Positions 7,757 to 29,228 of a stretch of DNA of 64,000 bases are shown piece after piece. Made by a program: the position numbers and the translations under genes. The stretch covers positions 1 to 64,000 of the forward strand of contig JAFAYV010000053.1 of NCBI GenBank assembly GCA_019240115.1, read 5' to 3'. The notes beneath the pieces were generated by a model. That model was not told the DNA's origin. It searched no databases and saw only the letters and a list, made by a program, of their open reading frames with translations. The DNA is from Solirubrobacterales bacterium (lineage in GTDB: Bacteria; Actinomycetota; Thermoleophilia; Solirubrobacterales; Solirubrobacteraceae). Each line of letters begins with the position of its first letter. The stretch's first letter is position 1.

Positions 7757-8713
7757 TTACTCGCCCAGGTTGCCCGGCGCGAGCGCCTCGAGCAGCTCGA
7801 GCGTCGCCGGCGGCTCGCCCATCGGGGCCAGCACGACGGTGGTGATCCCGCCGTCGACGAACTGCTGCAGGCGCGCGCGGATCTCGTCCGTCGAGCCGAG
7901 GAGGAAGATCTCGCGGATGAGCTCCTCGGGGGCGACCGCGAGGGCGCGATCGCGGTCCCCGGAGGTGTAGGCCTGCACCATCGGATCGAGCTGCTCCGCC
8001 CAGCCGAGCCACCGGAAGAACGCCGCATACACCGGCACGCTGCCGTAGGCGGTGAACATCCGCCTGGCGGTCTCCATCCCGGCGTCGGGGTCGCCGGGGA
8101 TGATGAAGAACCGGCACGCGAGCTCGCCCGCGCCGCCCGCGCGATGCGCGGCGACGACCTGGGGCAGGCCCGAGAGGGGGAGGAAGTTCGTGAACGCCCC
8201 GTCGGCGAGCTCGCCGGCGAGGCCGAGCATCTTCGCGCGCAGCGCCGCGAGCACGATCGGCACCGGCTCGGTGACCGGTCGCTCGAGCCGCAGCCCCCCG
8301 AAGCCCTTGCCGGCAGGCACCGAGAGCACGGGGCGCAGCGACTCGACGGCCTCGCGGACCCTCGTCAGCGGCTTCTCGAACGTCATCCCGTTGAAGCGCT
8401 CGACGACGACGTCCGAGGAGGAGCCGATCCCCAGCACGAAGCGGCCGCCCGAGGCCTCCTGCAGCGCCGCCGCGGTCTGGGCGAGCACCGCCGGCCCACG
8501 GGTGAACGGGTTGACGATCCCGGTGGCGAGCCGCAGCCGCTCGGTCACCGGTGCGGCGAGCGCGAGCGTCGTGAACCCGTCGGTTCCGGCCGGAGTCTCG
8601 CTCGACCACACGTCGTGGTAGCCGAGCGCCTCGACGTGGGCAAGCAGCTCGGGATGCTCGTCGAGCGGCACCCCGGCGAAGGGCACCGTGATCCCCCATC
8701 GGGTCTCGATCAC
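7757..8713 (-). CDS. LLM-class (F420-dependent-type) oxidoreductase
   Basis: Luciferase-like TIM-barrel oxidoreductase of 318 aa, a family that commonly uses F420H2 or FMN for hydride transfer. Visible signatures: WGITVPFAGVPLDE at the N-terminus, then LATGIVNPFTRGPAVLAQTA and GRFVLGIGSSSDVVVERFNG. The GTG start overlaps the stop of the upstream FadH-like gene by four bases (GTGA), so it is translationally coupled as the last gene of the five-gene operon. In this setting a reductive or dehydrogenating step on an alicyclic acid or acyl-CoA is plausible. The substrate is unknown. Confidence 0.82.
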   Translation of the reverse strand: MIETRWGITVPFAGVPLDEHPELLAHVEALGYHDVWSSETPAGTDGFTTLALAAPVTERLRLATGIVNPFTRGPAVLAQTAAALQEASGGRFVLGIGSSSDVVVERFNGMTFEKPLTRVREAVESLRPVLSVPAGKGFGGLRLERPVTEPVPIVLAALRAKMLGLAGELADGAFTNFLPLSGLPQVVAAHRAGGAGELACRFFIIPGDPDAGMETARRMFTAYGSVPVYAAFFRWLGWAEQLDPMVQAYTSGDRDRALAVAPEELIREIFLLGSTDEIRARLQQFVDGGITTVVLAPMGEPPATLELLEALAPGNLGE

Positions 8714-10824
8714 GCGCGCGAACCTATCAGGCGGGCGATCAGCGCCGGCGCCCGCAGACCCTCGCGGAACGCGCGCTCGGCGTCGAGCTCGCGCGCGTCG
8801 GCGGCCCCCCCGATGACGACGTGCGGCCGCCCGGCGGCCCGCAGCTGTGCGGCGAGCCCGTCGCGCGGCCGCTGGCCGGCGGCGATGACGACGACGTCGG
8901 CGGGCACCCGCTCCGAGCGGCCCGCCCGATCGCGAATCACCACCGCGCCGGGCTCGATGCGCTCGTAGGCGATGCCGGTCAGAGTGCGCACGCCGGCGGC
9001 CCGCAGCTCGGCGAGCAGCGCCCAGCGGGTCGTCGGGCCGAGCCGCTCCCCGACGCGCTCGCCGCGGCGCATGAGCGTCACCTCGCGGGCCGCCGGCGGC
9101 GGACGCGCGTCCCGGCCGTCGAGGCCGTAGCGCACGTAGAAGTCGGCGCGAGGATCGGCGGACCCGCGGTGGCTGAGCCGGTGAGCGACGTCGACCCCGA
9201 TCCCGCCGGCGCCGACGATCGCCGCGGTCGCGGCGGGCTCGATCGCGACCGTGCCGTCGAGGGCGGCGGCGTAGCTGAGGACGTGGGGCAAGTCGGCGCC
9301 CGGGATGCGCACCGGCGCCGGCACGACGCCCGTGGCCACGACGACGGCGTCGAATCCGGCGAGCTCGTCGGCCGCGGTCACCGGCGAGCCGAGGCGGACG
9401 TCGACGCCGAGCGCGGGGAGCTGCGCGGCGAAGTAGTCCCCGGTGCGCCCGTAGTCCTCCTTGCCGGGGATCTCCGCCGCGAGCCGGAACTGCCCGCCGA
9501 GCCGGTCGGCGGACTCGAACAGCGTCACCGCGTGTCCGGCGGCCGCGAGCGCGCGGGCCGCCTCCATCCCCGCCGGCCCTCCGCCGACCACCGCGACCTC
9601 GACCGAGGTCCGGTCGCCGCGGGCCGCGTCGCCGTCGGCCGCGTCGCGATCGGCCGCGTCGCCATCGGCCCCGTCGCCATCGGCCGCGTCGCCATCGGCC
9701 GCGTCGCGATCGGCTCCGCCGGCGAGCTCGAGCTCGCGCCCGGCGCGCGGGTTGACGACGCACGAGACCCGGCGATCGAAGATCGAGCGATCGATGCACG
9801 CCTGATCGCAGGCGATGCAGACGTTGACCGCTCGTCCGGCTCGCCCCCGGGCCACGATCTCGGCGTCGGCGAGGAACGGGCGCGCCAGCGACGCGAAGTC
9901 GGCGTCGCCGGCGGCGAGCATGTCGTCGGCGAGCGCGAGCGTGTTGATCCGATTCGACGCGATCACCGGCACGTCGACGACGTCGCGGATCGCGCGCGCC
10001 CACGGCCGCCAGGCCCCCACCGGTACGAGCGTCTGCACCGTCGGGATCCGCGCCTCGTGCCAGCCGACGCCGACGTTGAGCGCGTCGACGGTGCCGTCGG
10101 CGAGCGCGGCGGCGAGGGTCAGCACGTCCTCGGCGGCGGTCCCGCCGTCGACGAGGTCGGCGCCGGAGATGCGGTAGACGAGCGCCCGCCCGGGGCCGAG
10201 CGCCTCGCGCACGGCGGCCGCCACCCGCCGCGGGAATCGCAGCCGCCCCGCGCTGTCGCCGCCCCACTCGTCGGCGCGGAGGTTCGTCGCGGGCGCGGTG
10301 AACTGGTTGAGCAGGTAGCCCTCGGAGCCCATCAGCTCAACGCCGTCGAAGCCGAGTTGGGCGGCGCGGGCGGCGCCGGCGGCGAAGTCGGCGATCGTGG
10401 CCAGGACCTCGTCACCGGTCAGCGCTCGAGGTTCTGACCCGCTGAGGCGCGCGAACACCGCCGAGGGCGCGACCGGCCGCACGCCGAAGGACCGCTCGTC
10501 GGCGTAGCGCCCGGCGTGGAAGAGCTGGAGCAGGATCCGGCCGCCGGCCTCGTGGACCGCCTCGGCGACCCGCGCGAGCTTGCCGGCGTCGGCCCCGTCG
10601 TTCACGAAGCTGTAGTTGCGACCGCCGGCGCCCTCGCGGTTGACCGCCGACCCGCCGGTGACGATCAGCGCCGCGCCGGCGCGCGCCCGCTCCCGATAGA
10701 AGGCGGCAAGCGCGCGACCGTCATCGTCGTCGCCTTCGAGGCCGAGATGCATCGAGCCCATGACGATCCGGTGGGGCAGCGTCAGCGGGCCGATGTCGCC
10801 CGCGCGGAAGACGTGCTCGTACAC
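8710..10824 (-). CDS. fadH: NADH:flavin oxidoreductase / 2,4-dienoyl-CoA reductase (FadH-type)
   Basis: Protein of 704 aa with an Old-Yellow-Enzyme barrel (about 1-340; QLFHAGRYA, NQFTAPATNLRADEWGG), an iron-sulfur cluster motif CIACDQACIDRSI plus a later Cys (C-x2-C-x3-C-x11-C), and FAD/NAD(P)-binding domains (VAVVGGGPAGMEAARALA). That is the FMN/4Fe-4S/FAD layout of E. coli FadH, which reduces 2,4-dienoyl-CoA to an enoyl-CoA. An unusual repetitive Ala/Asp/Gly linker, coded by a 15-bp tandem repeat, joins the barrel to the FAD domain. It starts 19 bases after the acyl-CoA dehydrogenase gene. Other trimethylamine-dehydrogenase-like reactions cannot be excluded. Confidence 0.87.
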   Translation of the reverse strand: MYEHVFRAGDIGPLTLPHRIVMGSMHLGLEGDDDDGRALAAFYRERARAGAALIVTGGSAVNREGAGGRNYSFVNDGADAGKLARVAEAVHEAGGRILLQLFHAGRYADERSFGVRPVAPSAVFARLSGSEPRALTGDEVLATIADFAAGAARAAQLGFDGVELMGSEGYLLNQFTAPATNLRADEWGGDSAGRLRFPRRVAAAVREALGPGRALVYRISGADLVDGGTAAEDVLTLAAALADGTVDALNVGVGWHEARIPTVQTLVPVGAWRPWARAIRDVVDVPVIASNRINTLALADDMLAAGDADFASLARPFLADAEIVARGRAGRAVNVCIACDQACIDRSIFDRRVSCVVNPRAGRELELAGGADRDAADGDAADGDGADGDAADRDAADGDAARGDRTSVEVAVVGGGPAGMEAARALAAAGHAVTLFESADRLGGQFRLAAEIPGKEDYGRTGDYFAAQLPALGVDVRLGSPVTAADELAGFDAVVVATGVVPAPVRIPGADLPHVLSYAAALDGTVAIEPAATAAIVGAGGIGVDVAHRLSHRGSADPRADFYVRYGLDGRDARPPPAAREVTLMRRGERVGERLGPTTRWALLAELRAAGVRTLTGIAYERIEPGAVVIRDRAGRSERVPADVVVIAAGQRPRDGLAAQLRAAGRPHVVIGGAADARELDAERAFREGLRAPALIARLIGSRA
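9622..9711. repeat. 15-bp tandem repeat (6 copies) inside the FadH-like gene
   Basis: Six consecutive copies of a GGCCGCGTCGCCATC-like unit with one or two changes each. It is in frame and adds an Asp/Ala/Gly-rich linker between the OYE and FAD domains. Copy number could vary between strains without breaking the frame. Confidence 0.9.
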
Positions 10825-10843
10825 GCGCGGCGCCTGGTACCCG

Positions 10844-12010
10844 CTACCGCAGCAGGTCGCGCGCGATCACGGTCTTCTGGATCTCGTTCGTGCCCTCCTC
10901 GAAGCGCTGGGCCCGCGCGTCGCGGTAGACCCGCTCAATCGGGCTCGACGACCAGTAGCCGATCCCGCCGTGGACCTGGAGCGCGTCGTCGGTGACCCGT
11001 TGGAGCATCGTGACCGCGAACAGCTTGCTCATCGCGGAGGCGGCGTTGGCGTCGCCCCCGGCCTCCCACGTCTGCGCCGACTGCATGACGAGCGCCCGGG
11101 CGGCCTGGATCTCGGTCGCCATCTCGGCGAGCGTGAACGCGATCGCCTGGCGCTTGGCGATCACCTTGCCGAACGTCTCGCGGCGCTGGGCGTACTCGAG
11201 CGCGAGGTCGAACGCCCGCTGGGCGAGGCCGACGCAGGTCATCGCCACCGCGATCCGGCTCGGGGCCAGGAAGCCGCTGAGCGCCACGCCGAGCCCGTCG
11301 CCCTCCTCGCCGAGCCGGTTGGCCACCGGCACCGGCGCACGATCGAACACGAACTGGCCGTGGTCGGTGCCGCGCACGCCCATCGTCTCGGGCATGACGG
11401 TGGCGTCGATCCCCTCGCCGTGCGGCGGCACGAGCAGCGCCACCGTCCCGTCGGCTCCGGTCGTTCCCTCCACGCGCGCGAACAGCAGCAGGTAGTCGGC
11501 GATCGTGCCGAACGTGATCAGGTGCTTCTCGCCGCTGAGGTAGTAGGTGTCGCCCTCGCGCACGACGCTGCAGCGCAGGTCGGCGCCGGTGCCCGCGGTC
11601 GGCTCGGTGAGCGTGAACGCGACCTTGATGTCGCCGGCGACGAGCGGCAGCACGAAGCGCTCGCGCTGCTGCAGCGAAGCGTGGGAATCGACCGGACGCC
11701 AGACGCCATTGCAGACGTGGACGATCATCCGCAGCGATGCGTGGGACATCGCGAACAGCTCGAGCAGCGGCAGGTACTGGGTGAAGGGCAGGCCCCGGCC
11801 GCCGTAGGCCACGGGCGCCGCGAGGTTCAGGTAGCCGCGATCGCGCAGCTGCACCCAGAGCGCCATCGGGACCGCGCGCTCGCGCTCGATCCGCTGCGCC
11901 CAGCGCTCGCCGTCGTCGGCGACGTAGTCGCGGACCTCCTCGGTCAGCGCGGCCAGCTCGGCCTCGGGCATCGGGGAGGGAGTCGTGTCGGCGACGGGGG
12001 CTGTCGTCAT
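10844..12010 (-). CDS. Acyl-CoA dehydrogenase
   Basis: FAD-dependent acyl-CoA dehydrogenase of 388 aa, introducing a 2,3 double bond and passing electrons to ETF. Recognisable segments: AFTLTEPTAGTGADLRCSV (FAD-binding loop), RETFGKVIAKRQAIAFTLAE, and the C-terminal LQVHGGIGYWSSSPIERVYR with RFEEGTNEIQK. The ATG overlaps the stop of the CoA ligase gene by four bases (ATGA), so the two are coupled. With that ligase and the dienoyl-CoA reductase it forms a set able to oxidise or isomerise a cyclic acyl-CoA. Chain or ring specificity cannot be read from the sequence. Confidence 0.9.
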   Translation of the reverse strand: MTTAPVADTTPSPMPEAELAALTEEVRDYVADDGERWAQRIERERAVPMALWVQLRDRGYLNLAAPVAYGGRGLPFTQYLPLLELFAMSHASLRMIVHVCNGVWRPVDSHASLQQRERFVLPLVAGDIKVAFTLTEPTAGTGADLRCSVVREGDTYYLSGEKHLITFGTIADYLLLFARVEGTTGADGTVALLVPPHGEGIDATVMPETMGVRGTDHGQFVFDRAPVPVANRLGEEGDGLGVALSGFLAPSRIAVAMTCVGLAQRAFDLALEYAQRRETFGKVIAKRQAIAFTLAEMATEIQAARALVMQSAQTWEAGGDANAASAMSKLFAVTMLQRVTDDALQVHGGIGYWSSSPIERVYRDARAQRFEEGTNEIQKTVIARDLLR

Positions 12011-13590
12011 GTCGCTACCGCCTTTTTCGGCTCCGCGACCAGTCGCTGCGCCCGCTCGCGGAGGATGAACTTCTGGATCTTGCCCGATGGCGTGCGCGGG
12101 AGCTCGGGGACGATCTCGAGGCGCTCGGGCCAGTAGGCCTTGGTCACGCGCCGGCCCTCGAGGTACTCCTGCATCGCCTCGAACTCGAGCTCGCCGCCGC
12201 TCGCGAGCACGACGAACGCGCACGCGCGCTCGCCGAGGCGCGGGTCGGGCATGGCGACGATCGCCGCTTCGGCGATCGCGGGATGGTCGTAGAGGAGCTG
12301 CTCGATCTCGGCGACCGGCACCTTCTCGCCGCCCCGGTTGACGATGTCGCGGACCCGGCCGGTGATCCGCAGTTGGCCGTCGGCGTCGAGCGTCGCCAGG
12401 TCGCCGCTCCGGTACCAGCCGTCGGCGGTGATCGCCTCGGCGGTCAGGTCGGGACGGTTCAGATACCCGGTGAACAGGCAGTCGGTCAGTACCTCGAAGT
12501 TCCCTTCGACCCCGGGCCCGAGCACGCGCCCGGCGTCGTCGACGATGCGCAGCGAGACATTGGGCATCGGCCCGCCGTCGGTCGTCCACGCCCGCTCGGG
12601 AGGCGCGCCGGGGGTGAACGCGGCGCCCAGGCAGCTCTCGGTGGTCCCCCAGGCGCCTCCGACCTCGGCGCCGAGCACGGCGCGCGCCTCCCGGGCGAGC
12701 GCGCGCGGGATCGCTGCCCCGGTGGCCACGAACGTCCGCAGTGCCTCCGGCGCGCCGGCGTCGCGCGCCTCGGCGACGAGGTCGGCGAGGAACGGCGTGG
12801 CGGCCTGCGTGAACGTCGCCCCGAAGCGCCGCGTCGCGTCAAGGCCGACGCGGGGGTCCCATACCTCCTGGACGAGCTGGGTGGCGCCGAGGCGCAGCGC
12901 GATCCACATCCCGTAGAGAAAGCCGGTCTGGTGGGCGAGCGGCGAGGGGATGTAGATGACGTCCCGGGCGGTCAGCCCGAAGTGGGCGATGTGCGCGTCC
13001 GCCGCCCTGGTCAGAACGTCGTGGCGATGCAGGACCCCCTTGGGTTCGCCGGTGGAGCCCGAGGTGAACAGCAGCTGGGCGCTGTCGCAGCCGCGCGGAC
13101 GGCGGGCGGCGAGCGCCGCCGGGTCCGGCTCGGCGCCGGTCAGCTCCTCGTGCTGAGGGGTTCCGAGCACGATCACGTGCTCGAGCTCGGGCGCCACGAG
13201 GCCGGCGGCGAGCGCGGCGTGGTCGCGTCCGCGGAACCGCCCCGGGACGACGAGGACCCGCACCCGGCCGGCGCGGAGCATGAACTCGAGCTCGCGGGCG
13301 CCGAAGATCGGCATCAGCGGCTCGCACACCGCCCCGACGCGAAGCGTCGCCAGGGCCACGGTCAGGAACTCGAGTCGGTTGGGCAGCTGGAAGGCGACGT
13401 TCTCGCCGGCCGCGACCCCGAGCGCGACCAGCCCGGCGGCGGCTCGGTCGACCTCGGCGGCGAGCCCGCCCCAGGTGATCTGGCGGTCGGCGCCGTCGGA
13501 GCCGACCGCGATCGCCGCCAGGTCGTCGGCCCGGCGCTGGGCGTGCGCGTCGAGGTCGTCGAGGATCAGGGCGCAGGACGCCGTCGTCAC
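12007..13590 (-). CDS. Acyl-CoA synthetase / AMP-dependent CoA ligase (AliA/CaiC-like)
   Basis: Adenylate-forming ligase of 527 aa that would activate a carboxylic acid with ATP and CoA. Core motifs: LLFTSGSTGEPKGVLHRHD (P-loop, A3), GAWGTTESCLGAAF (A5), GWYRSGDLATLDADGQLRIT (A7/A8), then a PRTPSGKIQK Lys motif (A10). Overall it looks closest to cyclohexanecarboxylate- or crotonobetaine-CoA ligases. The GTG start overlaps the EPSPS-like gene's stop by four bases. Position directly after a shikimate-type enzyme suggests the substrate is a cyclohexene or cyclohexadiene carboxylate; this is inference. Confidence 0.88.
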   Translation of the reverse strand: MTTASCALILDDLDAHAQRRADDLAAIAVGSDGADRQITWGGLAAEVDRAAAGLVALGVAAGENVAFQLPNRLEFLTVALATLRVGAVCEPLMPIFGARELEFMLRAGRVRVLVVPGRFRGRDHAALAAGLVAPELEHVIVLGTPQHEELTGAEPDPAALAARRPRGCDSAQLLFTSGSTGEPKGVLHRHDVLTRAADAHIAHFGLTARDVIYIPSPLAHQTGFLYGMWIALRLGATQLVQEVWDPRVGLDATRRFGATFTQAATPFLADLVAEARDAGAPEALRTFVATGAAIPRALAREARAVLGAEVGGAWGTTESCLGAAFTPGAPPERAWTTDGGPMPNVSLRIVDDAGRVLGPGVEGNFEVLTDCLFTGYLNRPDLTAEAITADGWYRSGDLATLDADGQLRITGRVRDIVNRGGEKVPVAEIEQLLYDHPAIAEAAIVAMPDPRLGERACAFVVLASGGELEFEAMQEYLEGRRVTKAYWPERLEIVPELPRTPSGKIQKFILRERAQRLVAEPKKAVAT

Positions 13591-14906
13591 TCGCGGCCCC
13601 CGACCGCCGCCGGCACCCGCGGCGTGACCGCGGCCGGGATCCCGATCGCGTTCATGTGCTCGAGGAACTCGGGATAGGAGATGCGGTAGGCGTGGGGATA
13701 GGAGAGCTCGGTCACCCCGGTCGCGGTCGAGCCGGCGATCCCCAGCGCCATCAGCACGCGGTGGTCGTTGAACGAGGACAGCGCGGCGCCGCGGAGCCCG
13801 GGGACGCCCTGAAACTCCAGGTCGGTCCCGTCGAACTCGATCCGCGCCCCCATCCGCCGCAGCTGGAGCATCGAGGCGACGCGATCGGACTCCTTGAGGC
13901 GGACGTGGGCGACGTGCGAGAGCACCGTGCGCCCGCGCGCGCGGCTGGCCAGGGTGGAGAGGATCGGGACCATGTCGGGGATGTCGCGGCAGTCGAGGCG
14001 GCCCGCGACCGGGGGCGTGCCGTCGTGGTCGATCGAGATCGACAGTCCGTCGGCGGCGAAGCGCATCGGCACCCCGACGCCCTGCAGCTCCTCGAGCACC
14101 GAGGCCTCGGGATGGCCGTGGATCGGCTGCAGGCTGCGGAAGGTGACGCGCGACGGATGCAGCGCGCACGCGGTCAGCCCGAAAGCCGCGGAGCCGATGT
14201 CCGGGGGCAGGACGACGTCGGCGGCGACCGGCTGCTGGCCGGGTTCGATCGAGAACTCGCGCCAGTCCTCGCGGGCGATCACCGTCATGCCGAACTGCCG
14301 CATCATCTCGATCGTCAGCTCGAGGTAGGGACGCTCGTTGAGGTCGCCGCGGATCTCGATCGTCGTCGGTTCCTGCGCGAACGGGGCGATCATCATCAGC
14401 CCCGAGATCCACTGGGAGAGTGTGCCGTCGATGCGAATCCGGCCGCCGCGGGGGCGGCCCGGGTGGACGGTGACCGGCAGGCCCTGGCCCTCGTAGTCGA
14501 TCCGCACCCCCATCCGCTTCAGCGCCCGGAGCAGCGGGCCGATCGGCCGGCGCTTGAAGTAGCGCTGTCCGACGATCCGCACCGGCCGGTCGGCGAGCGC
14601 CGCCAGTCCAATGAGGAAGTACAGCGTCGTGCCCGAGCTGCCGACCGACACCTCGTCGCTGCGTGGGGAGAAGCCGGTGGCGCCGCGCACCCGCCAGCCG
14701 TCGCCGACCGCGCGGACGTCGGTGCCGAGGCCGCGGAGTGCCTGCACGGTGAAGTTGACGTGCCGAGCGTCGGTGCGCTGGACGATCGTGCTCTCCCCGG
14801 GGGCCAGCGCGGCGAGCATCAGCGCCCGGTGGGCGTGGTATTTGGACGGCGGGATGACGATCTCGCCCTCGAGGGGGGCCTTGGGCTTGGCGACCAGCAG
14901 ACGCAT
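13587..14906 (-). CDS. Divergent EPSP-synthase-family protein (AroA-like)
   Basis: Protein of 439 aa with the enolpyruvyl-transferase fold along its whole length (PPSKYHAHRALMLAALA, GTLSQWISGLMM, RLKESDRVASM, SSFNDHRVLMALGI). The ATG at 14906 has AGGAG just upstream; longer starts add unrelated residues. By E. coli AroA numbering (from memory) K22, R27, R124, Q171, D313, K340, E341, R344, H385 and R386 are kept, but S23 is Tyr, R100 is Tyr96, S169 is Leu and K411 is Ile409. Such changes at phosphate/PEP-contact positions argue against ordinary EPSP synthesis. It leads an operon with a CoA ligase, an acyl-CoA dehydrogenase and a dienoyl-CoA reductase, so it probably acts on shikimate or a relative. 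Confidence 0.82.
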   Translation of the reverse strand: MRLLVAKPKAPLEGEIVIPPSKYHAHRALMLAALAPGESTIVQRTDARHVNFTVQALRGLGTDVRAVGDGWRVRGATGFSPRSDEVSVGSSGTTLYFLIGLAALADRPVRIVGQRYFKRRPIGPLLRALKRMGVRIDYEGQGLPVTVHPGRPRGGRIRIDGTLSQWISGLMMIAPFAQEPTTIEIRGDLNERPYLELTIEMMRQFGMTVIAREDWREFSIEPGQQPVAADVVLPPDIGSAAFGLTACALHPSRVTFRSLQPIHGHPEASVLEELQGVGVPMRFAADGLSISIDHDGTPPVAGRLDCRDIPDMVPILSTLASRARGRTVLSHVAHVRLKESDRVASMLQLRRMGARIEFDGTDLEFQGVPGLRGAALSSFNDHRVLMALGIAGSTATGVTELSYPHAYRISYPEFLEHMNAIGIPAAVTPRVPAAVGGRE

Positions 14907-15603
14907 CTGGGGTTCTCCTGTCGGGGCGGGGCTGCAAGCCCCGGCGGACGACCCGGTACGGCCGGGCGCACACCCGAGGGGCGGGGGGACGACCGACGGG
15001 CAGACTACCCGCGCCCGCGGCCGGATTCGGCCCCCCGAACGGTGGGTTTTTGCGTCCCCATAGGCGACGCGCCGGCGCGGGACCGCGGAAAGGATCGTCC
15101 CCATGCGTCACGGGGGCGGTTGTCCGAGGGCGCGCGTGTTCGGGTCTGGGTCACTCCGACTGCCGGCCGAGCGGTCGTCGCGAGCGAGCGCGCAGGATCG
15201 ATGGGATGCAATCGTGGGTGGGTCGCGGTCGCCCGCGGGAAGGTTGCGGGGCCAGCCGCTGAATCGAATCGACCGAACCCCGCGCATCCCGGCTGGGCTC
15301 GGTGCAAATGATCTTCGTGACCGACGACAAGGCGCCAAGGCTCGCCGCGGGGATGGGGGGTTCGGTGAGAAATCTCCGGGCACGAGCGTGCGGCAGGATG
15401 GGGGGTTCGGTGAGAAATCTCCGGGCACGAGCGTGCGGGAGCTCGACGGAAGCAATCGGCGCACCGATCCGGTTGCCGCTGGATCGGCGCGGCGATCCGG
15501 TTTGCGGCCGGCATGTCCGTCGCCGTGCCACGAGGCTGCTCGATCGCGCGCCGCGCGCCGGTCGCTCGAGGAGATCGCCCCACCGCTGACGGCGGAGTGA
15601 CGC
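14907..15603. other. Non-coding region of about 700 bases
   Basis: Open frames exist here on both strands, but none resembles a known domain; they are Arg/Pro/Ser-rich and codon-shadow-like. The region must hold the promoter of the EPSPS-like operon (only its AGGAG ribosome site, a few bases 5' of the start, is clear) and the 3' end of the citrate-synthase-like gene. Its one striking element is a 43-bp direct repeat. Confidence 0.6.
15351..15438. repeat. 43-bp perfect direct repeat (two copies, 2-base gap)
   Basis: Copies at 15351-15393 and 15396-15438 are identical. Each contains GAGAAATCTC, a short dyad, and GCACGAGCGTGC, a 5+5 dyad. It begins with GGATGGGGGGTTCGG. It could be a dispersed repeat, a protein-binding pair or a recent tandem duplication. 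Not coding as far as I can see. Confidence 0.9.
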
Positions 15604-16695
15604 TCACCTGCCGACCGCCGACAGTGGTCGCGGTCCCGCCCCCACGTACAAGGCCGCCGGACGGATGAGGCGCCCCGTCCGGTGCTGCTCGGCGATGTGC
15701 GCCGACCATCCCGCGGTCCGCGCGCACACGAACAAGGGCGTGAACAGCGTCTGCGGCACCCGCGCATGGTCGAGCACGACCGCCGACCAGAACTCGACGT
15801 TGGTGGCGAGCACGCGATCGGGCTTGTGCTCGGCGAGCGCGGCCAGCGCCGCTCGCTCGAGCTCGGCGGCCACCTGCAGCCGCGGCGAACGCAGCCGCTC
15901 GGCGGTCTGGCGCAGCGCCCGCGCACGCGGATCCTCGGCGCGGTACACGCGGTGGCCGAAGCCCATGATCCGCTCCCCGCGGTCAAGCAGCCCTCGCACG
16001 TGAGCGTCGGCGTCCCCCTCGCGCTCGACGGCGTCGAGCATCCTCAGCACGCGCGCGGGCGCGCCGCCGTGCAGCGGCCCCGACAGCGCGCCGACCGCGC
16101 CGCTGAGGGCGGCGGCGACATCGGCGCCGGTGGAGGCGATGATCCGGGCGGCGAACGTCGAGGCGTTCATCCCGTGCTCGGCCGCGGTGATCCAGTAGGC
16201 GTCGATCGCGGCCGCTCGGTCGGGGTCGGCCTCGCCGCGCCAGCGCAGCAGGAAGCGCTCGGCGAGGGTCCGTCCCCCGTCGATGACGCCGTCGGGCACC
16301 GGAGCGGTCCCGACCCCGCGCGCCGACTGGGCGACGAAGGACAGCGTCGTCGCGGCGACCCGCGCGAGCTGGTCGCGCACGACCTCGGGGCTTGAGTCGA
16401 CGAGCGGCGCCAGCCCCCATTCGGGCGCCAGCGCGGCGATCGCCGACTGCACGTCAACGCGCGTATCGCCTGTCCGCAGGCTCAGCGGGTGGGTTCCGGC
16501 CGGCGGCAGCGGGCGGTCGGGCCGTCCGTCGACGAGCAGGCCCCAGACCCCCTCGAACGGCAGCGCGCCGACGAGCTCCTCGACGTCGACGCCGCGATAG
16601 CGCAACGAGCCGCCGTCGCGGTCGGGCTCGGCGATCGCGGTCGCGAACGCCAGCACGCCCTCCAACCCGTCGTGCACATCGTCGATCGTCGGCAT
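15604..16695 (-). CDS. Citrate synthase family protein
   Basis: Citrate/2-methylcitrate-synthase-like enzyme of 363 aa that condenses an acyl-CoA with a 2-oxoacid. The catalytic set is present: GPLHGGAPARV (His), GFGHRVYRAEDP (His), and VEFWSAVVLDHARVPQTLFT (Asp), with a GWSAHIAEQ segment after it. The ATG at 16695 is preceded by GGAG at a good distance. Slightly shorter than classic GltA and closest to the small 'citrate synthase 2' type. It is divergent from an HTH-containing homologue, with a palindrome between them. Whether the substrate is acetyl- or propionyl-CoA cannot be decided. Confidence 0.85.
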   Translation of the reverse strand: MPTIDDVHDGLEGVLAFATAIAEPDRDGGSLRYRGVDVEELVGALPFEGVWGLLVDGRPDRPLPPAGTHPLSLRTGDTRVDVQSAIAALAPEWGLAPLVDSSPEVVRDQLARVAATTLSFVAQSARGVGTAPVPDGVIDGGRTLAERFLLRWRGEADPDRAAAIDAYWITAAEHGMNASTFAARIIASTGADVAAALSGAVGALSGPLHGGAPARVLRMLDAVEREGDADAHVRGLLDRGERIMGFGHRVYRAEDPRARALRQTAERLRSPRLQVAAELERAALAALAEHKPDRVLATNVEFWSAVVLDHARVPQTLFTPLFVCARTAGWSAHIAEQHRTGRLIRPAALYVGAGPRPLSAVGR

Positions 16696-16750
16696 TGCGT
16701 CTCCTTCCGGTCTCGGTTTCGCCCGACAGGCTCGATGGCGCACGCATGCA

Positions 16751-16764
16751 GATCAACGTTGATC
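16751..16764. promoter_or_regulatory. 14-bp perfect palindrome between divergent citrate-synthase genes
   Basis: GATCAACGTTGATC is a perfect dyad, and TTGATCACGTCAA overlaps it as a second, looser one. It lies 11 bases before the nearest start on the right and 56 before the one on the left. A good candidate operator, perhaps for the HTH of the neighbouring protein itself. Confidence 0.6.
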
Positions 16765-16774
16765 ACGTCAATAT

Positions 16775-18022
16775 ATGTTCATGACGACGATGACGACCGA
16801 GCAGGTCGCGCGCCGGCTCGGCGTCAAGCGCGAGACCGTCTACGCCTACGTCAGCCGCGGCCTGCTCGCGCGCGCCCCCGCCACCGACCGCCGCCGCGGA
16901 TCGCGCTTCAACGCCGACGAGGTCGAGCGCCTCGCCGGACGCGCCCGCCGCGCCGACCGCTCGAGCGCGCTCGAGGTCGTGATCGAGACCCAGCTGACCC
17001 GGCTCGATCCCGCCGGTCGGCTCGCCTTTCGCGGGCGCGACGCCGTCGAGCTCGCGCGGTTTCGCAGCTTCGAGGACGTCGCCGGGCTGCTGTGGGGCGG
17101 GGACGCCGGGGCGCCGTGGGATCTCGATCCCGCCTCGGCGCGCCTCGTCGCTCGGCTCGGCGCCGACCTCGGCGTGCCGGCGCCGTCGGTCGACGTCATC
17201 CCGGTCGTCGTCGCCGCGCTCGCCGCCGGCGACCCGCTGCGCGGCGACCGCCGTCCTGAGGCGGTGCGGCGGTCGGGGGCGCGGATCCTCGCCGGCACGC
17301 TCGACGGTCTGGCGGGCGGCTCGGCTTCCCCGGGCGGCTCGGCTTCCCCGGACGGCTCGGCTTCCCCGGGCGGCCCGGGCGCCGCGGCGCGACTGTGGTC
17401 GGCGCTGTGCGGCGGCGCGCGTCATCCTCGCCCGGCGCAGGTGGCGGCGCTCGACGCGGCGCTCGTCCTCCTCGCCGATCACGAGCTCGCCGCCTCGACG
17501 CTCGCCGCGCGGGTGGCGGCGTCGGCGTGGGCCGACCCGTACCGGGTCGTGCTCGCGGGCCTCGGGCCGCTCGGAGGGACGCTGCACGGAGCCGCGTCGG
17601 AGTCGATCGAGCGGCTGCTCGCCGAGATCTCCGAACCCGACGGCGCGTTCGCCGCGCTCGAGCGGGTCGTCGCCGCCGGGGGACCGGGCGCCGGGGTGGC
17701 CGGCTTCGGGCACCCGGTCTACCGCGACCGCGATCCCCGAGCCGACCACCTGCTCGATCGCATCGCGCCGGTCGCCGACGACCCCGATCGCGCGCGGACC
17801 GTCGCCGCCGTGCTGAGCGCGGCCGCGGCGCTGAAGCTCCCCGCACCGAACGCCGATCTGGCGCTCGCCGCCCTCGCCCGCGCGATGGGCCTCGTTCCCG
17901 GCTCGGCGGCGATCATCTTCACCGTGGCGCGCATCGCCGGCCTGATCGCCCACGCGATCGAGGAGTACCCGCACCGGCTGCGCTTCCGCCCGCGCGCCAC
18001 CTACGTCGGGGCGGGCGGATGA
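16775..18022 (+). CDS. Citrate synthase family protein with N-terminal HTH
   Basis: Fusion of 415 aa. Residues about 6-60 form a MerR/excisionase-type helix-turn-helix (TTEQVARRLGVKRETVYAYV, then a GSRFNADEVERL wing). The remainder is a citrate-synthase fold with GTLHGAASESI (His), GFGHPVYRDRDP (His) and PNADLALAAL (Asp), so the catalytic triad appears intact. A Gly/Ser/Ala/Pro linker coded by an 18-bp repeat interrupts the large domain. Three ATGs lie in the first six codons, so the exact start is open. The HTH suggests either self-regulation from the adjacent palindrome or DNA-tethered metabolic sensing. Similar HTH-citrate synthases occur in other actinobacteria, from memory. Confidence 0.85.
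   Translation: MFMTTMTTEQVARRLGVKRETVYAYVSRGLLARAPATDRRRGSRFNADEVERLAGRARRADRSSALEVVIETQLTRLDPAGRLAFRGRDAVELARFRSFEDVAGLLWGGDAGAPWDLDPASARLVARLGADLGVPAPSVDVIPVVVAALAAGDPLRGDRRPEAVRRSGARILAGTLDGLAGGSASPGGSASPDGSASPGGPGAAARLWSALCGGARHPRPAQVAALDAALVLLADHELAASTLAARVAASAWADPYRVVLAGLGPLGGTLHGAASESIERLLAEISEPDGAFAALERVVAAGGPGAGVAGFGHPVYRDRDPRADHLLDRIAPVADDPDRARTVAAVLSAAAALKLPAPNADLALAALARAMGLVPGSAAIIFTVARIAGLIAHAIEEYPHRLRFRPRATYVGAGG
17315..17368. repeat. 18-bp in-frame tandem repeat (3 copies)
   Basis: Three copies of GGCGGCTCGGCTTCCCCG (third with one change) code a GGSASP-type linker in the HTH-citrate synthase. Length change by whole units would keep the frame. Confidence 0.9.
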
Positions 18023-28301: not shown

Positions 28302-29228
28302 GTGGACTACGGGGTCTTCCTGCCGGTCTCGGGCTCGGCTGCGACCCGCGACGGGCTGCGCCATGCGGCGCAGACGGCCGAGCGGCTGCGCTTCAGCACC
28401 GTATGGGCCGCCGACCGGATCGTCATCCCCTGGCAGATCGACACCGCGTACGCCTACAGCTGGTCGGGAACGTTCATCGTGCCGCCCGAGAAGCCGTTCC
28501 TCGACACGATGACGGCGCTCGCCTTCCTCGCCGGGGCGACCGATCGGATCGGGCTCGGGATCAGCGTCCTGGTCACCACCTACCGCAACACGCTGCACTG
28601 GGCCAAGGTGGCGGCGACGATCGACCGGCTCTCGGAGGGACGGTTCATCTGCGGGGTCGGGATCGGCTGGATGCGCGAGGAGTTCGAGGCCCTCGGACTC
28701 GGAGAGCGCTTCGAGCAGCGCGCCGCGCTGGGCGAGGAGCAGATGGCAGTCGCGCACAATCTCTTCTCCGAGTCGCACGCGAGCTTCCACGGCGCGTTCC
28801 ACGACTACGACGACATCGCCTTCGAGCCCAAGGCCCACGGAGCCCGGATCCCGATCTGGTGCGGCGGCGAGAGCCGCGGCGCCCAGCGGCGCGCCGGCCG
28901 CCAGGCCGACGCCTGGTTTCCGTACTTCACCGAGATCACCCCGCAGGGCCTGCGCGAGCGCTTCGAGTACGTGCGCGAGACCGCCGCCGCTGCCGGGCGC
29001 GATCCCGACAGCGTGCGCCTGAACTGCTGTCTGCCCGTGGAGGTCACCGACGCGCCGATCGAACAGGATCCGCAGCGCCTGCGCGGCACGCCGCAGCAGA
29101 TCGCGCACGCCCTGGCGGCCTTCGAGGCGGTGGGCGTCGAGCACGTGGCGCTGCAGTTCCTCGTCGGGCGCTTCCCGGAGCGACTCGCGCAGATGGAGCG
29201 GCTCGCCCCCGCGATCATGCCGACCTAA
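28302..29228 (+). CDS. LLM-class F420-dependent-type oxidoreductase
   Basis: Luciferase-like oxidoreductase of 308 aa (MDYGVFLPVSGSAATRDGLR; LAGATDRIGLGISVLVTTYR; GRFICGVGIGWMREEFEALG; PIWCGGESRGAQRRAG), matching the F420-dependent actinobacterial subfamily. The GTG start appears to be leaderless. It is divergent from the PaaK-type ligase and lies in the aromatic-CoA region, so a redox role on an aromatic-derived intermediate is possible. No substrate can be assigned. Confidence 0.85.
   Translation: MDYGVFLPVSGSAATRDGLRHAAQTAERLRFSTVWAADRIVIPWQIDTAYAYSWSGTFIVPPEKPFLDTMTALAFLAGATDRIGLGISVLVTTYRNTLHWAKVAATIDRLSEGRFICGVGIGWMREEFEALGLGERFEQRAALGEEQMAVAHNLFSESHASFHGAFHDYDDIAFEPKAHGARIPIWCGGESRGAQRRAGRQADAWFPYFTEITPQGLRERFEYVRETAAAAGRDPDSVRLNCCLPVEVTDAPIEQDPQRLRGTPQQIAHALAAFEAVGVEHVALQFLVGRFPERLAQMERLAPAIMPT

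What the first reader, a model, noticed from the sequence alone, without database searches (positions are those of the whole stretch)
7757..14906. Candidate shikimate-to-alicyclic-acyl-CoA operon led by an EPSP-synthase homologue
Five overlapping or closely spaced minus-strand genes combine an EPSPS-family protein, an acyl-CoA ligase, an acyl-CoA dehydrogenase, a FadH-type dienoyl-CoA reductase and an F420-type oxidoreductase. From memory, the cyclohexanecarboxyl-CoA pathway of ansatrienin and phoslactomycin producers converts shikimate to a saturated ring acid using the same kinds of enzyme, including an EPSPS-like protein. Here no polyketide genes are near, so the product might instead prime omega-cyclohexyl lipids or another metabolite. 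The F420-type enzyme could be a new reductase in such a pathway.
Basis: partly seen in the sequence, partly recalled or inferred. Interest (0 to 1): 0.82.

Follow-up and report, generated by a model that had tools for sequence, protein, structure and literature searches.

The report
Cyclohexane-acid operon with swapped reductase
This gene set most likely turns shikimate into a saturated six-carbon ring that caps membrane fats, and in this soil-bacterium lineage the usual final reducing enzyme seems to have been replaced by an unrelated one that uses the rare cofactor F420.

Summary
In detail: five minus-strand genes, 7757-14906, three junctions overlapping by 4 bases and one 19-base gap. The genome (Solirubrobacteraceae; its genus includes Conexibacter sp. 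S30A1) also holds a canonical aroA and murA, so the EPSPS homologue is a third copy. It falls on its own fully supported branch with 36 relatives that share S23Y, S169L and S197E while keeping most enolpyruvyl-transfer residues. The cassette EPSPS-ligase-acyl-CoA dehydrogenase-FabL-type SDR-FadH recurs in Lentzea, Streptomyces, Conexibacter and Eremiobacterota. Its ligase/dehydrogenase/SDR/FadH core also occurs in Alicyclobacillus acidocaldarius, the classic maker of omega-cyclohexyl fatty acids from shikimate. The cyclohexanecarboxyl-CoA reading is therefore well supported; membrane-lipid priming is the likeliest use. Correction: A. acidocaldarius lacks the EPSPS-like gene and has a second ligase/dehydrogenase pair instead, so that entry enzyme is replaceable. 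New point: the window's genus has repeatedly lost the FabL/ChcA-type SDR, and lineages that lost it carry an F420-type luciferase-like reductase beside the operon, from two subfamilies. Four of five SDR-bearing relatives have none; one has both. This suggests an F420-dependent enoyl-CoA reductase replaced the SDR. Chemistry and product are inferred, not shown. Verdict: new variant of a known kind.

The parts
13587..14906 (-). CHC-type EPSP-synthase paralogue (439 aa), first gene; S23Y/S169L/S197E/K411I; probably activates unphosphorylated shikimate for elimination
   Evidence: passes TIGR01356 (299.5 vs 287.25 bits), yet lies on a separate 100/100 branch and is a third PF00275 copy
12007..13590 (-). 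Alicyclic-acid CoA ligase (527 aa)
   Evidence: best NCBIfam TIGR03208 cyclohexanecarboxylate-CoA ligase, 497 bits, below its 792 cut-off; AMP-forming motifs and catalytic Lys kept
10844..12010 (-). Acyl-CoA dehydrogenase-fold enzyme (388 aa), catalytic Glu kept; best NCBIfam hits include acryloyl-CoA reductase and cyclohexane-1-carbonyl-CoA dehydrogenase, all below cut-off
8710..10824 (-). FadH-type 2,4-dienoyl-CoA reductase (704 aa), catalytic Tyr/His and four 4Fe-4S cysteines kept
   Evidence: (E. coli 2,4-dienoyl-CoA reductase 1ps9, 491 bits)
7757..8713 (-). Luciferase-like (LLHT) F420-type reductase (318 aa), proposed replacement of the FabL/ChcA-type SDR
   Evidence: TIGR03841 198 bits, cut-off 213.65; Mer, 85 bits
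10825..10843 (.). 19-base ACAD-FadH junction where the SDR gene stands in relatives (L034, L047, L201, L202)

Best explanation
An operon that makes cyclohexanecarboxyl-CoA (or a close alicyclic acyl-CoA) from shikimate, most likely to prime omega-cyclohexyl fatty acids. Inferred steps: the EPSPS-like enzyme uses its retained PEP-side machinery on unphosphorylated shikimate, with Glu and Tyr replacing serines that bind shikimate 3-phosphate, so that a hydroxyl can be eliminated; the ligase makes the CoA thioester; FadH reduces the dienoyl-CoA; the dehydrogenase-fold enzyme and the F420-dependent LLHT reduce or rearrange the remaining enoyl-CoA bonds, the LLHT replacing the FabL/ChcA-type SDR lost in this lineage; the acyl-CoA then primes fatty acid synthesis through KAS III. 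Shown here: gene content, orthology, residue substitutions, linkage, SDR loss and F420 biosynthesis genes. Not shown: substrates, products, cofactor use, lipid content.
For: Own branch of CHC-type proteins (37 rows, 28) apart from AroA and MurA, support 100/99 and 100/100. Invariant S23Y, S169L, S197E with K22, R27, G96, R124, Q171, D313, K340, E341, R344, H385, R386 kept. All 12 carrier genomes examined have further PF00275 copies, including AroA and MurA in those checked. Cassette in Lentzea, Kitasatospora, Streptomyces, Eremiobacterota, Conexibacter, with KAS III pairs upstream in Lentzea and Kitasatospora. Ligase-ACAD / FadH-SDR cluster in genome G461, whose contig C1 of 3,018,755 bp equals the published A. 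acidocaldarius DSM 446 chromosome; that strain has about 51% omega-cyclohexane C17:0 and 33% C19:0 (PMC3035248). Ligase orthologue in 24 of 41 genomes of that family. CHC-CoA of the asukamycin pathway enters omega-cyclohexyl fatty acids (PMC4147253). SDR is FabL-like and lost in 11 of 16 operon genomes of the genus, two of them single-contig; an LLHT is adjacent in 10 of those 11 versus 1 of 5 SDR carriers. CofD and FbiC genes in G000.
Against: A. acidocaldarius and 18 other genomes of its family with the ligase lack the EPSPS-like gene, so that step is not obligatory. No omega-cyclohexyl fatty acid report was found for this genus. SDR/LLHT complementarity rests on few independent events, Fisher p 0.013 without tree correction, and G016 has both. 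The LLHT falls just below its family cut-off and F420 binding is untested. No KAS III gene was seen beside the window operon. The EPSPS-like protein passes the AroA model cut-off.
Confidence: 0.72

Rival explanations
1. The operon makes a related alicyclic or still unsaturated/hydroxylated ring acyl-CoA (for example cyclohexenyl or dihydroxycyclohexadienyl) for a small secondary metabolite, not a membrane lipid.
For: The FabL/ChcA-type SDR is absent from the genome. Homologous cassettes lie beside KAS III and biosynthetic genes in Lentzea and Kitasatospora. FadH is also missing beside the operon in DBS9H8 (L075).
Against: No PKS or NRPS-like gene was recognised near the operon among the called genes. 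The operon is held by 16 of the 28 genus genomes sampled, window included, broader than usual for a special metabolite. An LLHT stands where the SDR is lost.
Confidence: 0.17
2. Catabolic operon: degradation of cyclohexanecarboxylate or of shikimate/quinate through CoA esters.
For: The ligase and dehydrogenase resemble cyclohexanecarboxylate-degradation models TIGR03208 and NF043006.
Against: Both are far below the equivalog cut-offs (497 vs 792; 188 vs 650). FadH and the FabL-like SDR of relatives are reductases. The EPSPS-like enzyme keeps PEP-side residues. No hydratase, thiolase or ring-opening gene is in the cassette. The core occurs in an omega-cyclohexyl fatty acid producer.
Confidence: 0.06
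3. The EPSPS-like protein is a working second AroA that happens to head an unrelated operon.
For: It passes the TIGR01356 aroA cut-off (299.5 vs 287.25) and keeps most catalytic residues.
Against: Separate canonical AroA beside a prephenate-dehydrogenase-like gene in the genome; 100/100 separate branch; S23Y, S169L, S197E invariant in the group; linkage kept across phyla.
Confidence: 0.05

Closest known systems
Cyclohexylcarbonyl-CoA gene clusters of Streptomyces (ansatrienin, phoslactomycin, asukamycin)
   Same: By recollection, the same enzyme kinds in the same order (EPSPS homologue, ligase, acyl-CoA dehydrogenase, dienoyl-CoA reductase, plus an SDR reductase ChcA). The cassette found here in Lentzea, Kitasatospora and Streptomyces has these kinds, with a FabL-like SDR.
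   Different: No polyketide genes nearby; the SDR is gone and an F420-type LLHT ends the operon. The reference protein sequences themselves were not available for comparison.
Omega-cyclohexyl fatty acid cluster of Alicyclobacillus acidocaldarius DSM 446 (genome G461, locus L192)
   Same: Orthologous ligase, acyl-CoA dehydrogenase and FadH in one cluster, with a FabL-like SDR.
   Different: The Alicyclobacillus cluster lacks the EPSPS-like gene and has a second ligase and dehydrogenase instead; genes lie in two divergent arms; no LLHT was recognised.
E. coli AroA (EPSP synthase, 1g6s)
   Same: Same fold family (167 bits); K22, R27, R124, Q171, D313, K340, E341, R344, H385, R386 kept.
   Different: S23Y, R100Y, S169L, S197E, K411I; separate branch.
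F420-dependent luciferase-like hydride transferases (Mer, Apd6, LxmJ)
   Same: Same superfamily; Apd6 and LxmJ reduce carbon-carbon double bonds (PMC8498797); Mer is the best solved relative (85 bits).
   Different: The term 'enoyl' does not occur in that review; an acyl-CoA substrate would be new as far as found here.

Membership tests
CHC-CoA (cyclohexylcarbonyl-CoA) biosynthesis cassette | EPSPS-like, alicyclic ligase, acyl-CoA dehydrogenase and FadH genes linked in one operon | tested here: met
CHC-CoA (cyclohexylcarbonyl-CoA) biosynthesis cassette | 1-cyclohexenylcarbonyl-CoA reductase of the SDR type (ChcA-like) present | tested here: not met
   Absent from the operon; best SDR in genome 162 bits versus 447-478 for orthologues. 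The claim is therefore 'a variant that works like it', not a standard member
CHC-CoA (cyclohexylcarbonyl-CoA) biosynthesis cassette | Sequence kinship to the ansatrienin/phoslactomycin cluster proteins | not testable with these tools
   Those sequences and papers are not held; only the Streptomyces, Lentzea and Kitasatospora loci were compared
CHC-CoA (cyclohexylcarbonyl-CoA) biosynthesis cassette | Product derived from shikimate | not testable with these tools
   Needs labelling and mass spectrometry
AroA (EPSP synthase) | Shikimate 3-phosphate binding residues S23, S169, S170, S197, K340 | tested here: not met
   S23Y, S169L, S197E in all CHC-type rows with a letter there (36, 37, 37); S170 and K340 kept
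AroA (EPSP synthase) | Groups with AroA in a tree | tested here: not met
   Separate branch, 100/100
AroA (EPSP synthase) | Scores above the curated aroA model cut-off (TIGR01356) | tested here: met
   299.5 vs 287.25 bits
FadH 2,4-dienoyl-CoA reductase | Catalytic Tyr and His and 4Fe-4S cysteines | tested here: met
   Invariant in 17 sequences; 491 bits to 1ps9
F420-dependent luciferase-like hydride transferase | Scores above a curated F420 subfamily cut-off | tested here: inconclusive
   198.2 vs 213.65 for TIGR03841; relative L066 208.5
F420-dependent luciferase-like hydride transferase | Host can make F420 | tested here: met
   CofD 258.6 vs 257.45 and CofH/FbiC 410.9 vs 374.1 on contig C19
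Cyclohexanecarboxylate-CoA ligase TIGR03208 | Score above equivalog cut-off | tested here: not met
   496.9 vs 792.3; same level (477-502) in the A. acidocaldarius, Kitasatospora and L096 ligases

The most novel reading that the evidence does not exclude
An F420H2-dependent luciferase-like enzyme has replaced the NADPH-dependent FabL/ChcA-type enoyl-CoA reductase in alicyclic acyl-CoA synthesis, from at least two LLHT subfamilies within one genus, and the CHC-type EPSPS paralogue is an enzyme that uses PEP chemistry on unphosphorylated shikimate to drive its dehydration.
Probability: 0.4. Interest if true: 0.78.

Novelty: new variant of a known kind. Interest (0 to 1): 0.6.

Why it matters
If right, it places shikimate-derived cyclohexyl acyl-CoA synthesis in a little-known soil and acid-mine lineage and in other phyla, gives a residue signature that separates a protein likely to be annotated 'AroA' from true EPSP synthase, and points to an F420-dependent enoyl-CoA reductase. 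It also shows two apparently interchangeable entries to the pathway (EPSPS-like, or a second ligase plus dehydrogenase), which makes the first step, dehydration of shikimate, directly testable.

Tried and rejected
Second AroA: rejected by a separate aroA and murA, the tree and the pocket residues. Chance clustering: rejected by conserved order and co-divergence. SDR elsewhere in the genome: none of orthologue strength. PF01933 as an F420 marker: not discriminating (it rings in E. coli), so TIGR01819 and TIGR03551 were used. Papers on lipids of Conexibacter S30A1/DBS9H8: none held. The asukamycin paper is not held. My expectation that all Alicyclobacillus with omega-cyclohexyl lipids carry the EPSPS-like gene was wrong. 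The first tree left out the E. coli-like AroA class by a labelling slip of mine; one search repeats it with that class. A motif check used a pattern that could not match the CHC-type motif; it was used only to confirm that the other loci carry ordinary AroA motifs. A structure prediction was not run: residue mapping by alignment was judged enough.

Full report
Observation. The five genes are at 7757-14906 on the minus strand as described: EPSPS-like 13587-14906, ligase 12007-13590, acyl-CoA dehydrogenase (ACAD) 10844-12010, FadH/OYE 8710-10824, luciferase-like (LLM, or LLHT) 7757-8713. Three junctions overlap by 4 nt and one gap is 19 nt, so one operon is likely. Pfam and NCBIfam agree with the family names. 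An amino-acid-kinase-family gene (UMP kinase-like) lies convergently downstream and a citrate-synthase-family gene upstream.

Host. The window is G000:C32 in a 4.03 Mb, 99-contig assembly. Named relatives with the same operon at 73-83% EPSPS identity are Solirubrobacterales MAGs, Conexibacter sp. S30A1 and Conexibacter sp. DBS9H8. In the genus 15 of 27 sampled relatives carry the orthologue; in other genera of the family and order only AroA-level matches were seen.

The EPSPS homologue is not AroA. The genome has three PF00275 proteins: a canonical AroA next to a prephenate-dehydrogenase-like gene, MurA, and this one. A phylum-wide profile search is bimodal: orthologues at 523-889 bits, everything else at 228 or less. 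Trees with MurA and with both AroA classes including E. coli put all CHC-type sequences on one branch (100/99 and 100/100). In an alignment of 37 CHC-type and 27 AroA sequences the CHC type has S23Y (36 of 36 with a letter), S169L (37 of 37; the alignment has a gap next to this site, so S169 or S170 may be the lost one), S197E (37 of 37), R100Y or Q, and K411I or G. K22, R27, G96, R124, Q171, D313, K340, E341, R344, H385 and R386 are kept. From general knowledge of the E. coli enzyme, S169, S170, S197 and K340 hold the 3-phosphate of shikimate 3-phosphate, S23 and R27 its carboxylate, and K22, R124, R344 and R386 the PEP side. The inference is an enzyme with PEP-side chemistry but a substrate without the phosphate. 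It does pass the automatic aroA cut-off (299.5 vs 287.25 bits), so public annotation will tend to call it AroA.

The cassette elsewhere. The single named-genome scan and neighbour comparison show EPSPS-ligase-ACAD-SDR-FadH in Lentzea, Streptomyces sp. G-G2, Conexibacter RYN_242, a Solirubrobacterales MAG and Eremiobacterota MAGs, and EPSPS-ligase-ACAD-SDR in Kitasatospora mediocidica and a Rubrobacteraceae MAG. In Alicyclobacillus the same genes sit in two divergent arms. Some Streptomyces (L088, L091, L097, L101) hold the EPSPS-like gene alone. Pairwise identities of ligase, ACAD, SDR and FadH follow those of the EPSPS-like protein (r 0.89-0.95). In Lentzea and Kitasatospora KAS III genes lie just upstream, fitting use of the product as a starter unit. 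The SDR is closest to FabL and has a conserved Tyr and Lys spaced Y-x6-K (Y160 and K167 in alignment A3), which fits an enoyl reductase; ChcA of Streptomyces is, from memory, an SDR enoyl-CoA reductase.

Link to a phenotype. Among 41 genomes of the family of Alicyclobacillus mengziensis, 24 hold the cassette ligase at 773 bits or more, the next tier being 595 or less. Genome G461 has a contig of 3,018,755 bp, exactly the published chromosome length of A. acidocaldarius DSM 446 (PMC3035248), whose fatty acids are about 51% omega-cyclohexane C17:0 and 33% C19:0; that paper's reference list includes the formation of these acids from shikimate. Its cluster (L192) is ACAD2-ligase2-SDR-FadH divergent from ligase-ACAD. 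It has no CHC-type EPSPS; only 5 of the 41 genomes do. Two clusters with the EPSPS-like gene lack ligase2-ACAD2 (L197, L198), seven of eight inspected clusters without it have the pair (the eighth, L195, is cut by a contig end), and A. mengziensis has both. So the ligase/ACAD/FadH/SDR core goes with omega-cyclohexyl lipids, and the entry step seems to have two forms. In the asukamycin producer CHC-CoA also primes omega-cyclohexyl fatty acids (PMC4147253). Sulfobacillus genomes were likewise reported to hold genes for omega-alicyclic fatty acids (PMC4378227).

The reductase swap. SDR orthologues (447-478 bits) occur in G007, G016, G019, G022, G023 and G027; in all other genomes of the genus the best SDR is at 186 bits or less. 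Of 16 genus genomes with the operon, 11 lack it, including the single-contig G011 and G015. Ten of those 11 have an LLM gene next to the operon; the eleventh (G003) is cut by a contig end. Of the 5 with the SDR, one (G016) has an LLM gene as well (Fisher p 0.013, not corrected for kinship). Two positions and subfamilies are used: downstream, TIGR03841-like, in the window and G016; upstream, TIGR03619-like, in nine others; the two are only distantly alike. A third subfamily, TIGR03617, follows the SDR in G157. G016 (SDR, FadH and LLM) looks like the state before SDR loss and the window like the state after, with 19 bases left between ACAD and FadH. The genome has CofD and FbiC genes, so it can probably make F420. 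Known LLHT reductases act on carbon-carbon double bonds in Apd6 and LxmJ (PMC8498797), so an enoyl-CoA substrate is plausible but not shown.

Likely working, with status. Step 1, EPSPS-like activation and dehydration of shikimate: inferred from residues. Step 2, CoA ligation: inferred from family (TIGR03208 best, below cut-off; the same level in A. acidocaldarius). Step 3, dienoyl-CoA reduction by FadH: well supported by residues. Step 4, remaining enoyl reductions by the ACAD-fold enzyme and the LLHT: inferred. Step 5, priming of fatty acids: inferred from Alicyclobacillus. No lipid data were found for this genus.

Verdict. The case is a variant of a known pathway with an apparently replaced reductase, in a new taxonomic setting.

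Noticed in passing
L191-L194, L196, L199, L200 versus L197, L198, L099: In Alicyclobacillaceae the CHC-type EPSPS gene and a second ligase/acyl-CoA dehydrogenase pair look like alternative entries to the same pathway; A. mengziensis has both.
   Followed up: partly
L088, L091, L097, L101: Streptomyces of the violaceusniger type keep a lone CHC-type EPSPS gene (a LysR-like regulator gene beside it in L088 and L091) without the rest of the cassette.
   Followed up: no
L086:9977-11254: Lentzea sp. NBRC 105346 has a second CHC-type EPSPS copy beside NRPS-like genes, apart from its full cassette (L078).
   Followed up: no
window 9622-9714: 15-base tandem repeat (6.2 copies) inside the FadH gene encodes an Asp/Gly/Ala-rich linker between its two domains.
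   Followed up: no
window 15351-15440: Two nearly identical 45-base direct repeats upstream of the operon.
   Followed up: no
window 15604-18022: Divergent pair of citrate-synthase-family genes; the second has extra N-terminal sequence that looks like a MerR-type helix-turn-helix.
   Followed up: no
L203:5427-7423 (G019): ACAD-SDR pair of the cassette without a recognised EPSPS or ligase, possibly a remnant.
   Followed up: no
window 28302-29225: A further LLM gene, above the TIGR03619 cut-off (213 vs 166.9), elsewhere in the window.
   Followed up: no
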